Positions 1 to 64,000 of a stretch of 64,000 nt of DNA are shown here, in pieces. Positions within the stretch are counted from its first letter, which is position 1. Every line of letters starts with the position of its first letter. The position numbers were made by a program, and so were the translations under genes. Below the pieces are notes generated by a model, which made no database searches, was not told the DNA's origin, and saw only the letters and a list, made by a program, of their open reading frames with translations. The stretch comes from Paenarthrobacter nitroguajacolicus JCM 14115 (GTDB lineage: Bacteria; Actinomycetota; Actinomycetes; Actinomycetales; Micrococcaceae): the NCBI GenBank assembly GCA_001313365.1, contig BBFS01000009.1, forward strand, positions 1 to 64,000, written 5' to 3'.

Positions 1-593
1 ACGAGGGCGGCTCCCCCCCCAACGTGCTGGGCGCCGCGACACTTGCCCGCGCCACCCAAGTCCTCGCAGGGCTCGATCAGGACGCGTGGCACGCCCACGA
101 GTCTGCCATCCGCTCGTACCTGGTGCAGGGCCTGGAGGCCATCGATGGCGTGACCGTCCACAAGATCTTCGCTGACTCCCTGGACACCATCGGTGTGGTC
201 AACTTCTCCGTAGAAGGATTCGACGCCGGACTGGTTGCGGCTTACCTGGCGGCCGAGCACGGGGTTGGCCTCCGTGATGGCCGGTTCTGCGCCCACCCGC
301 TCCTCAAACGCCTCGGGCTCCCCCCCTCCGGATCCCTGCGTGCCAGCTTCGGCGTCGGCTCCCGGTTGGAGGACGCCACCAGGCTGCTCGCAGGCATCGA
401 AGGACTCAAGCGCGACGGACTGGGCTGGGACTACGTGGTGGACGAGGGCCGTTGGTTCCTGCAAATGACCATCGCAGCTACCCCGAATGGGCCCCCCCTA
501 ACACTCCCGGCACTGCGGGCGCAGCTCCCTGCACTGTTGACTAGGAACACTGCGGACCGGGAACACTGCGGTAAATTCATAGGGTACTTTTAG
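1..593 (+). CDS. Class V aminotransferase / cysteine desulfurase-like enzyme (5' partial)
   Basis: Only the C-terminal part is present; the reading frame is open from base 3, so the start lies upstream of the window. The segment GVGLRDGRFCAHPLL matches the active-site cysteine loop of SufS/CsdA-type PLP enzymes, and SGSLRASFGVGS followed by a helix matches the small-domain end of that family. The PLP-binding lysine is outside the window. Two in-frame oddities, PPN near base 20 and GPPL near base 490, sit on runs of 8 and 7 C and are probably artefactual extra codons. The last ~30 residues look unlike the family, so the 593 stop may follow a frame error. It could act on cysteine or another small amino acid; the substrate is not clear. 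Confidence 0.75.
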   Translation, partial: EGGSPPNVLGAATLARATQVLAGLDQDAWHAHESAIRSYLVQGLEAIDGVTVHKIFADSLDTIGVVNFSVEGFDAGLVAAYLAAEHGVGLRDGRFCAHPLLKRLGLPPSGSLRASFGVGSRLEDATRLLAGIEGLKRDGLGWDYVVDEGRWFLQMTIAATPNGPPLTLPALRAQLPALLTRNTADREHCGKFIGYF

Positions 594-614
594 CGACCCT
601 GTGAAGGAGCTTTC

Positions 615-1451
615 GTGGCCCTGCGTTCACCGGCTGCCTCCAGCGGACAGCCACGTACTCCGGGACCAGCCGGGCCGCGTGGTCCAAGGCTGCATGCTTC
701 CCGCCGGCATGAACTCGGTCAGAGCTTCCAGGACGGCGGCGAACACTATGACCGCGTGCGACCCGGCTACCCCCCCGCCGATTCCGTGGACTGGCTGGTT
801 CCTCCAGGGGCGAGGTCCGCGGCGGACCTCGGAGCCGGCACAGGAAAGTTCACGGCACTCCTCGTAGAACGCGGCCTGGCGGTCACCGCCGTCGATCCTT
901 CCACGGACATGTTGGAGCAATTGCGAAAAGCCTACCCCCCCACGTCAATGCGCTGGAGGGAACGGCCGAGGCAACAGGACTGACGGACTCAGCATTCGAC
1001 GTCGTCAGCGTTGCCCAGCCTGGCACTGGTGCGAGCCCCCCCTTGCAGCAAGCACGGAGATCGCCCGGATCCTGCGGCCTCATGGGATCTTGGGACTGAT
1101 CTGGAATCAACTGGACACTTCTGTTCCGTGGGTTCACCGCCTTTCACGCATCATGCATGCAGGCGATGTCCACAAGCCCGGATTCCGGCCAGTCATCGGC
1201 CCGGAGTTTGAAGGTTTGAAAAGTCATCTGACCCGGTGGAGGATGCCCTGACGCCGGAGGACATCATGGAACTGACCAAGTCGCGCAGCTACTACCTCCG
1301 CGCCAACGACGCCACCCGTGCGAAGGTCATGTGCAACCTGGAGTGGTACCTCTACGACCACCTCGGACATGTCCCTGGTGAAACCATCGGGTTGCCCTAC
1401 ATGACGCAGACCTGGCGGGCAGTCAAGGTTCAAGGTACAACGCCACGGTAG
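615..1451 (+). CDS. Class I SAM-dependent methyltransferase (frame broken)
   Basis: The GTG start at 615 is preceded by GAAGGAG at 5 bases. The first segment (to about 940) contains the SAM-binding motif DLGAGTGKFT and a following acidic residue in AVDPSTDM. A run of 7 C at about 935 shifts the frame; reading on in the next frame gives NALEGTAEATGLTDSAFD and VVSVAQ. A missing base near 1018 shifts it again, and a WHW-type motif is then recognisable. The last segment (1236-1451) restores the first frame and ends at the TAG at 1449-1451. The layout fits Methyltransf_11/25-type enzymes of about 270 residues. The substrate is unknown. It lies 12 bases upstream of the mntR-like gene. Confidence 0.7.
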
Positions 1452-1463
1452 GCTTGGGGGGGT

Positions 1464-61694: not shown

Positions 61695-63583
61695 GACTTC
61701 TCCCCTGTTCCATCGTCATCAGGCGCCGGCATCCCGCCGACAGAGGGAGTCGGCTGCGGAGTCTCGCCGGAATCCTGGCCCAGTACCAGCATTTGCCGTT
61801 CGCTTGCCGCCCCCGGGGGGGAATCCTATGTCCGCAGGTTCCAGCTGAAGCGGAGACTTCACAATGGTGCCTCCTTGCCGCAGTGGAAGCGTCAGTCGGA
61901 AGTTGGAACCGGAACCCTTTCGGCCCCCCCAGCCTGAAGCCAACCGTTATGAAGCTTGGTGTCCTCGGCTGCGATGGAAAGGCCCAAGCCACTTCCTCCG
62001 GTGGTCCTGGCGCGTGCAGGATCTGCCCGCCAGAAGCGGTCGAAGACCCTGCAGCCTCAGCCTGGGTCATTCCGATGCCGTGGTCCCTTACTGACACCGC
62101 TACAGCTTCATGATTGGCAGCGACAGATATATGGACAGGCTTGCCTTCACCGTGTTCGAGGGCATTGAGCAGCAAGTTGCGGAGAATGCGGTCGATCCTG
62201 CGGGAGTCCATCTCCACGATGATGCTCTTTTGCCGGGCGTTCAGCCGGACTTCCGAGCCGTACTCCGCGGCCACCGGTGCGGCACCTTCCATAACGTGCG
62301 AGATCACTTGGAAAATGTCCTGCGGTTCTGCATCCAGCACGGCGGCGCCAGCGTCGAATCGTGAAATCTCCAGCAGGTCCGAAAGCAGCGATTGAAAGCG
62401 CTCAACCTGGTGGTACAGCAACTCCGCCGATCTCTTGTTCATGGGATCGAAATCGTCCCGCGCATCGAACAGGACTTCGGCCGCCATTCGTACCGTGGTG
62501 AGCGGGGGTACGCAGTTCGTGGGAAACATCAGAGACAAAGCGCTGTTGCATCTGCGACAACGTGGCCAACTGGGTGATCTGTTCCTGGAGGCTTGCGGCC
62601 ATGTGTTGAAGGAAGCGCCCAATCTCGCCACTTCGTCTTCTCCCTTAACCACCATTCGTTCTTGTAGTTGGCCGGCAGCAAGCTTTTCCGAGACGACGGC
62701 AGCATGGCTGACCGGACTGACTACGTTACGGGTCACGTACCAGGCAATGGCACCGATCATGAGGACGAGAGCCGCACCGCCTGCCCACAGTACGTTCTGA
62801 ATCTCGTCCAGTGTTTGCTGGGCGGTATTGAGGTCGTAGATCAGGTATAGCTCGTAAGCCGTTCCGTTGAACGTGACCATGTTTCCGACGGCGATACCGG
62901 GCCTGTCCTCGTTCCCCCACCGGAAACTGCGTGGAGGCCCAGAATTGCTGCTTGCCACCGCTTTGAACAGCCTTACGCAGCTCGGGAGGAATGACGCGAA
63001 CCGTCAGCTGGTCCGAAGCGCGCGATTCAACCCAACGGTTACGTGGTTTGGTTTGTTCCGGAGCAGCTTCGAAGACATACCTACGCTGGATGACCGAGCC
63101 CCCCCGGCCTTCCACGGCTGTCAAGGTGTCATAGACCAAGGTGATGACGCTTGACTGGTCGGTGACTTGGGCGCCGTCGAACGTGTCCTGGACTTGCTTG
63201 ACGTTAAAGCGCGACTCGGATTCCGCCTGTGCCAGCCTCTCCTGGAAGAGGTTGTTGGCGATTTGGTTGGACAGGTACGCGCCAACAATAGCGAACGACG
63301 TTACAGCGAGCAGCAATGTGGTCAGGACCGTGCGGAACTCCAACGACCGCCGCCATCGCCTCAACAAGGAACGCCAAACGAAGCGCAGCCCTGTCTTATT
63401 TGCCGCACGCCAATGGCGACGAGTCGCGAAACCCGAAGGACCAGGATCAATCCCCCCCGCCGTGTCCAGATCCGCGCCCGGGACAGGACCAGGTAAGGTC
63501 CTGGCCTCGCGAGCGGACTGATCAGGGGACGTATCGGGTTGCTCAGGGGACGTTTCCGGGGTCTCAGACTCAGCCGGGGTCAC
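61691..63583 (-). CDS. mtrB: Two-component sensor histidine kinase MtrB
   Basis: GTG 63583 opens TPAESETPETSPEQPD; the true start may lie further upstream, in a region disturbed by two C runs. A TM helix (VLTTLLLAVTSFAIVGAYLS) leads the sensor domain, then a second helix (ALVLMIGAIAWYVTRNVVS), HAMP, the H-box FVSDVSHELRTP, N-box LRNLLLNALEHGEGKPVHI, and G boxes with GIGMTQAEAAG. Shifts near 62930, 62600, 62500, 62070 and 61930. About 620 residues. It phosphorylates MtrA in cell-wall and division control. Confidence 0.93.
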
Positions 63584-63664
63584 CTGCTGGACACCGGCCG
63601 GATCGGGAGTTTTGGGGCCCGGACCCCCCCGCCTGCCCCCCCGCCGGTCTTGCCGACCGGGGAC

Positions 63665-64000
63665 TCAGGAACCTGCTTTATATCCGACACCACGCACCGT
63701 CAAAACGACCTCGGGCGCTTCCGGATCACGTTCAATCTTTGAGCGCAGACGCTGGACGTGAACATTGACCAGCCGGGTGTCAGCCGCGTGGCGGTATCCC
63801 CCCCATACCTGCTCGAGAAGCAATTCGCGGGTGAATACTTGCCACGGCTTGCGTGCCAGCGCTACCAAAAGATCAAACTCCAGGGGGCGTCAAGGAGATC
63901 CGCTCGCCGCCACGGGTCACCAAATGACCGGCGACGTCGATGGTCACGTCTGCGATACGCAAGGTCTCGGGGGGGCCTTCTGGTCACCCGGCCGCAACCG
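63665..64000 (-). CDS. mtrA: Two-component response regulator MtrA (C-terminal winged-helix part; window ends inside)
   Basis: The OmpR-type effector domain is visible: LVALARKPWQVFTRELLLEQ, VWGGYRHAADTRLVNVHVQR, LRSKIERDPEAPEVVLTVRG ending VGYKAGS. The upstream part reads IADVTIDVAGHLVTRGGERI after one shift near 63885. The receiver domain is beyond the window. VWGGYRH has a Gly-Gly where MtrA is usually VWGY, and a 7-C run sits there. It is the partner of mtrB. Confidence 0.93.

What the first reader, a model, noticed from the sequence alone, without database searches (positions are those of the whole stretch)
1..64000. Window-wide excess of ~7-base C/G runs: a run-length error that breaks genes
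By eye, runs of 6-8 C or G occur about three times per kb (about 28 in the first 9 kb), and their length is almost always exactly 7 rather than falling off. Where the correct sequence is known from family conservation, the run should be 4 or 5: RF2 HIPPTG for HIPTG, SecA GDPPGE for GDPGE, WhiB GVWGGGM for GVWGGM, FtsE DPPITS for DPITS. Lengthening 4 to 7 adds a codon; 5 to 7 breaks the frame. A few 4-runs are 5 (SecA 54190, TadA 14838), and single-base losses also occur. This explains most split genes here. Anyone mining this window should correct it before trusting any frameshift, truncation or novel ORF.
Basis: partly seen in the sequence, partly recalled or inferred. Interest (0 to 1): 0.75.

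Follow-up and report, generated by a model that had tools for sequence, protein, structure and literature searches.

The report
Over-long C/G runs: an assembly error
About half of the four-letter or longer C or G runs in this soil-bacterium-like contig were written one to three letters too long when the sequence was put together, so its many broken genes and extra proline or glycine codons are artefacts and not biology.

Summary
The window has 140 C/G runs of exactly 7 but only 16 of length 6. Five collinear relatives have 0-1 such 7-runs per 64 kb, and none of 206 whole genomes of the genus has more than 77 in all. At strictly aligned sites a relatives' run of 4 reads 4 (34 of 70), 5 (13), 6 (2), 7 (20) or 3 (1) in the window; runs of 5 read 5-8. 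Runs of 3 or fewer, and A/T runs, are nearly untouched. Lengthening does not depend on flanks, strand, position or coding status, and it also damages tmRNA. So it is an artefact decided by base and run length. A long-read (probably nanopore) draft with mis-modelled run-length calling is the likeliest cause; that is inferred.

The 7-runs are mostly frame-neutral (101 of 131). Frame-breaking comes more from 4-to-5 errors, and a second error, single-base loss, matters about as much. In a count-only test on 43 genes, near-full-length matches rose from 4 to 10 with runs alone, 7 with losses alone, 21 with both; relatives give 37-40. A blanket 7-to-4 rule gains nothing. A known kind of artefact; biological interest is low.

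The parts
1..64000 (.). Whole window: C/G runs of true length 4 or more over-lengthened, mostly by +1 to +3; 212 events, 493 extra bases inferred
8925..8942 (-). FtsE-type motif DPPITS carrying a G7 run (8934-8940); five of five relatives have DPITS
9954..9971 (-). RF2 motif HIPPTG carrying a G7 run (9960-9966); five of five relatives have HIPTG
   Evidence: (PCRF and RF-1 domains)
42687..42707 (+). WhiB-type motif GVWGGGM carrying a G7 run (42694-42700); five of five relatives have GVWGGM
54847..54864 (-). SecA motif GDPPGE carrying a G7 run (54853-54859); five of five relatives have GDPGE
   Evidence: (SecA domains in the neighbouring frame 55519-56556)
5255..5626 (-). tmRNA with over-long G/C runs at 5252, 5265 and 5280 and a lost base near 5445: a non-coding, conserved RNA hit by the same errors
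   Evidence: 138.8 bits here against 161.1-161.3 in five relatives
42857..44334 (-). PdtaS-type histidine kinase, split: the 410-aa frame (43113-44345) has no HATPase match, relatives' proteins are about 489 aa and mostly have one
   Evidence: 4 run frameshifts, 2 others against G416
53844..56590 (-). SecA gene, broken into several frames: 2 frame-breaking run errors, 4 in-frame run insertions, 5 other frame-breaking indels against G416

Best explanation
The extra letters were added when the consensus sequence was made; they are not in the bacterium's DNA. Shown: the outcome at a site depends on the base (C or G) and on the run reaching 4, and on nothing else tested; a run of 4 comes out as 4 about half the time, otherwise 7 or 5, rarely 6. 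Inferred: the contig is a long-read, most likely nanopore, draft whose consensus step picks a run length per base from read evidence with a table or model that does not fit these reads, so C/G runs are over-corrected upward, and which was not repaired with short reads. The co-occurring loss of single bases, mostly from CC/GG pairs, fits the same origin. Confidence that it is an artefact: about 0.98. Confidence in the nanopore, mis-modelled run-length cause: about 0.55. The score below is for the consensus-stage artefact in general; the neural-polisher rival is a variant of it.
For: (1) Spectrum: relatives' run counts passed through the observed length changes predict 4:162 5:86 6:16 7:147 8:20, against 158/77/16/140/23 observed (partly circular, since the change table comes from the same window). 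(2) Strict sites: C/G 4->{3:1,4:34,5:13,6:2,7:20}, 5->{5:1,6:3,7:5,8:4}, 6->{6:1,7:1,8:1}; C/G 3->3 in 366 of 372; A/T 4->4 in 49 of 49, 5->5 in 6 of 6 and 6->6 in 1 of 1. (3) No dependence on context: cross-validated AUC 0.46-0.49 from 6 bases on each side; C 86 of 161 and G 69 of 130 lengthened; neighbouring sites agree no more than by chance. (4) No sign of selection: frame-breaking (+1, +2) against +3 is 72:86 in coding and 19:29 in other sequence, Fisher p=0.51; for isolated runs 56:66 and 13:23, p=0.34. (5) A conserved RNA is damaged and SecA is broken. (6) No genome searched approaches it: maximum 77 seven-runs in about 4.7 Mb among 206 genus genomes, maximum 741 in 2.8 Mb among 396 phylum genomes, against 140 in 0.064 Mb. 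(7) Print: a Flye draft of P. aeruginosa from R9.4 metagenomic reads had 14,394 insertions against 439 deletions (PMC8011154, section 5 read); Flye drafts differed more in length from the references because they 'contained many insertion errors' and were sometimes over-circular (PMC11232133, passages); C and G homopolymers are read worse than A and T (PMC8486125, passages); run-length decoding by per-base maximum likelihood is described for MarginPolish (PMC7483855, section 60 read).
Against: No reads, coverage or assembly record could be seen, so platform and software are inferred. PMC8486125 says nanopore reads tend to shorten long runs, though it also reports some largely overestimated lengths for runs of 2-5 (passages), so a read-level origin is not excluded. 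My toy model of mismatched run-length decoding gave lengthening that starts at 4 but not the preferred jump from 4 to 7 with 6 skipped. The passages and sections seen do not describe a 7 peak. True lengths come from relatives 16-19% divergent, so single sites can be wrong; the loose count put seven runs on true lengths of 1-3, all of them beside another run and gone when isolated runs are counted.
Confidence: 0.9

Rival explanations
1. Real biology: the lineage has undergone a burst of C/G run expansion (a slippage mutator or an insertion process acting on runs of 4 or more), tolerated because +3 keeps the frame.
For: The +3 step is the commonest change (111 of 197 unanimous run insertions), and only runs of 4 or more change, as slippage would prefer.
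Against: No frame bias in coding against other sequence; SecA and many other genes broken; tmRNA damaged; A/T runs untouched at 56 of 56 strict sites with true length 4-6; no relative carries a 7 at the 42 of 140 seven-run sites with exact flanks.
Confidence: 0.01
2. Read-level error of a different platform or an old flow-based chemistry (pyrosequencing or ion semiconductor), not a run-length decoding step.
For: Such platforms also err mainly in run length (general knowledge; no call).
Against: A/T runs of the same length are untouched and a jump of +3 is commoner than +1; flow-based errors, as I recall them, are mostly plus or minus 1 and hit all bases.
Confidence: 0.08
3. A trained neural polisher applied with the wrong model, not a likelihood table, lengthened the runs (a variant of the best explanation, differing only in the software step).
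For: PMC7483855 says class weights were used because run-length classes are unbalanced in HELEN (passage), which could favour rare long lengths; outcomes avoid 6 as a learned output might.
Against: A network would be expected to use sequence context, yet context does not predict the outcome here.
Confidence: 0.25

Closest known systems
Insertion-dominated errors of unpolished or poorly polished nanopore drafts (Flye drafts in PMC8011154 Table 1 and PMC11232133)
   Same: Insertions far exceed the natural level, and indels split genes. Density is of a like order: 212 run events per 64 kb here against 14,394 insertions in one P. aeruginosa draft, taking that genome as about 6.8 Mb (recalled).
   Different: Those papers, as far as seen, do not report a C/G-only effect with a 7 peak; here single-base losses are also frequent (71 unanimous) where that table lists 439 deletions in a whole genome.
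Per-base run-length decoding (MarginPolish type, PMC7483855 section 60)
   Same: Such a step decides length by base and observed lengths only, with no context, which is the dependence found here.
   Different: No evidence that this software was used; my toy version did not reproduce the jump to 7.
Phase-variable homopolymer tracts
   Same: C or G runs of 7 in coding sequence.
   Different: Here the runs are spread over the window, in core genes as well as other sequence, tmRNA is hit too, and relatives lack them.

Membership tests
Consensus run-length artefact of a long-read draft | Run lengths differ from relatives with no regard to coding frame or function | tested here: met
Consensus run-length artefact of a long-read draft | Indels far above the between-relative level | tested here: met
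   192 frame-breaking indels in 43 genes against 14-23 between relatives
Consensus run-length artefact of a long-read draft | Length set by base and run length, not by context | tested here: met
   AUC 0.46-0.49; strand-symmetric
Consensus run-length artefact of a long-read draft | Reads show shorter runs than the consensus | not testable with these tools
   no reads held; no whole genome held for the window
Consensus run-length artefact of a long-read draft | Assembly made from nanopore or other long reads with a known assembler | not testable with these tools
   record not named; the protein search shows only that the window's own protein lies on a contig of 82,106 bases
Phase-variable homopolymer tracts | Tract kept or polymorphic at the same place in relatives | tested here: not met
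   relatives have lengths 0-6, never 7, at the 42 of 140 seven-runs with exact flanks; the other 98 were not comparable this way
Phase-variable homopolymer tracts | Confined to particular loci | tested here: not met
   spread over the window without clustering

The most novel reading that the evidence does not exclude
The runs are truly present: a living Arthrobacter-like lineage expands C/G runs of 4 or more, mostly by three, across its genome and survives through some compensation at the RNA or translation level.
Probability: 0.01. Interest if true: 0.9.

Novelty: not a real feature. Interest (0 to 1): 0.15.

Why it matters
It is a quality warning. Any frameshift, truncated domain, extra Pro/Gly residue or small ORF found in this contig, and probably in its sister contigs, is suspect. 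The signature (7-runs outnumbering 6-runs about 9 to 1, in C/G only) is a quick screen for such records. It also shows that a simple 7-to-4 rule would not mend the reading frames.

Tried and rejected
Sequence context, strand, position and coding status as causes of lengthening: none found. The highest ratio was 4.0, in a 1.6-kb locus with 4 seven-runs, against 8.2 for the window by the same measure; no locus printed has more than 4 seven-runs. 7-run counts in 206 genus and 396 phylum genomes: no other carrier. A protein search for another assembly of the same species (120 best of 7,227 listed): besides the window's own protein the best identity listed was 88%, so no independent copy to compare. 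A toy likelihood model: only partly reproduces the pattern. Paper searches (listings only, apart from the four papers cited) showed no description of a C/G 4-to-7 peak; that is no proof that none is in print. The original Flye and ABruijn papers are not held.

Rows dropped: strict counts need at least 2 relatives, unanimous, with exact 3-base flanks; loose counts use 377 of 414 runs, 37 set aside as unclear, and compare 8 bases each side, so a neighbouring run can leak in (repeats it on 273 isolated runs); one search left out indel clusters spanning over 60 bases or with fewer than 4 relatives; one search kept 43 of 59 candidate genes, those mapping to the window. Five of the 43 have weak coding signal (0.60 or less), and one, 8181-9420 on +, overlaps the FtsE motif on the other strand and is probably not a gene; one search gives tallies without the five.

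Full report
What was claimed.

Is it there? Yes. The window has 158, 77, 16, 140 and 23 C/G runs of length 4, 5, 6, 7 and 8 and none longer, while A/T runs fall off smoothly to 6. Markov models of order 1-3 fitted to the window itself predict about 7-18 seven-runs; order 5, which partly learns the excess, predicts about 35. Five of these are collinear over nearly all of the 64 kb, at 81-84% identity. They have 331-358 runs of 4, 71-83 of 5, 6-15 of 6 and 0-1 of 7 per 64 kb. Counting isolated 7-runs in whole genomes gives 0-77 in each of 206 genomes of the genus and at most 741 in each of 396 genomes of the phylum (a few genomes are in both sets), against 140 in 64 kb here. The 7:6 ratio is 16:478 in G066 and 741:3158 in G693, the genome with most 7-runs, against 140:16 here.

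What changed at each run? Base-level comparison with five relatives shows the rule. At strictly matched sites a C/G run of 4 becomes 3, 4, 5, 6 or 7 in 1, 34, 13, 2 and 20 of 70 cases; a run of 5 becomes 5, 6, 7 or 8 in 1, 3, 5 and 4 of 13; a run of 3 stays 3 in 366 of 372 (the other 6 read 2); A/T runs of 4-6 are unchanged in 56 of 56 (a second count anchored on the relatives gives nearly the same). A looser count over 377 of 414 runs gives 4->{4:136,5:48,6:6,7:100,8:1} (n=291) and 5->{4:1,5:24,6:6,7:21,8:14} (n=66); it also puts seven runs on true lengths of 1-3. Those seven lie beside other runs and vanish when only the 273 isolated runs are counted: 4->{4:94,5:37,6:4,7:80}, 5->{4:1,5:17,6:6,7:17,8:9}, 6->{5:1,6:2,7:3,8:2}. 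Strict and loose counts differ on how often 5 stays 5 (1 of 13 against 24 of 66); many of the 24 are runs where relatives differ by substitutions, which the strict count leaves out. In all, 212 run events add 493 bases. At the 42 of 140 seven-run sites with exact flanks in some relative, the relatives' lengths are 4 (81 comparisons), 5 (20), 6 (2), 3 (2) and 0 (3), never 7.

What decides it? Not the flanking sequence (AUC 0.46-0.49), not the strand (C 86 of 161, G 69 of 130), not the neighbourhood, and not coding status: frame-breaking against +3 changes are 72:86 in genes and 19:29 elsewhere (Fisher p=0.51), or 56:66 and 13:23 for isolated runs (p=0.34). The non-gene part is only 9.5 kb and may hold missed genes, so this test is not a strong one. 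tmRNA is hit too: 138.8 bits here against 161.1-161.3 in five relatives. Real mutations in SecA, RF2 and tmRNA would be selected against. This is an artefact of making the sequence.

Which artefact? The dependence on base and length only is what a run-length decoding step would give. Such a step, maximum likelihood per base with no context, is described for MarginPolish (PMC7483855, section 60 read). Insertion-dominated drafts are in print: Flye on R9.4 metagenomic P. aeruginosa, 14,394 insertions and 439 deletions (PMC8011154, section 5 read), and Flye assemblies off in length through insertion errors and over-circular contigs (PMC11232133, passages). C and G runs are read worse than A and T by nanopores; read lengths tend to be too short for long runs, though some short runs are largely overestimated (PMC8486125, passages). 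Upward over-correction at consensus is therefore my preferred cause, but a read-level origin is not excluded. A toy model in which the length table was trained on run-shortening reads gave over-lengthening that starts at 4 but did not give the jump to 7. That Flye itself uses a homopolymer length table is my recollection; its papers are not held. The platform stays an inference.

What breaks the genes? The 7-runs mostly do not: 101 of 131 are frame-neutral. Of 98 frame-breaking run events, 50 are in runs now 5 long, 30 in 7-runs, 12 in 6-runs, 4 in 8-runs and 2 in 4-runs. A separate error, the loss of single bases, is common: 71 places where at least four relatives all show one more base. In 36 of the 71 the lost base could be placed cleanly; 32 of those 36 are C or G, 29 come from a CC or GG run of two or more, and 21 have GCC or GGC over the lost base. 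In 43 genes defined from relative G416, the window has 192 frame-breaking indels in 40 genes, against 14-23 in 6-8 genes between relatives; split by place it is 72 at runs and 123 elsewhere, or 60 and 86 in the 38 genes with clear coding signal. In a test that printed counts only, genes matched over at least 95% of their length went from 4 to 10 of 43 with runs set to the relatives' lengths, to 7 with single-base losses set back, to 21 with both, and stayed at 4 with a blanket 7-to-4 change; three relatives reach 37, 39 and 40. So 22 of 43 stay short even with both, and the advice to distrust frameshifts here is right, but the stated cause is only part of it.

Independent copy? None found. The PdtaS-type protein of the window is on a contig of 82,106 bases in the protein collection, and the best of the other 119 proteins listed is 88% identical, so the decisive comparison with the same strain could not be made.

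Verdict. Observation confirmed; interpretation partly supported; an artefact of a known kind, with an unusually sharp C/G-only 7 peak whose exact cause is not proven.

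Noticed in passing
genomes G430 and G001 (G001 holds locus L001, Pseudarthrobacter sp. Fe7): G430 has no isolated 7-run of G or C and only 18 six-runs in 4.2 Mb, where G066, G409 and G416 have 435-478 six-runs; G001 has 2 seven-runs with 341 six-runs. G430 looks like the opposite artefact, shortened runs.
   Followed up: partly
window 455-63386, 71 places: Single-base losses supported by at least four relatives; in the 36 that could be placed, 29 fall in a CC or GG run of two or more: a second systematic error of this record.
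   Followed up: partly
L098 8145-8258, and L105, L106, L113, L114 at matching places: Each of the five relatives has a SAM-IV riboswitch about 5 kb beyond the tmRNA, at a place that would fall about 1 kb outside the window's left end; none is reported in the window.
   Followed up: no
window 12001-16000: Only 3 C/G runs of 6 or more in this 4-kb bin against 8-16 in the others; lengthened sites did not cluster over the whole window, so probably chance.
   Followed up: partly
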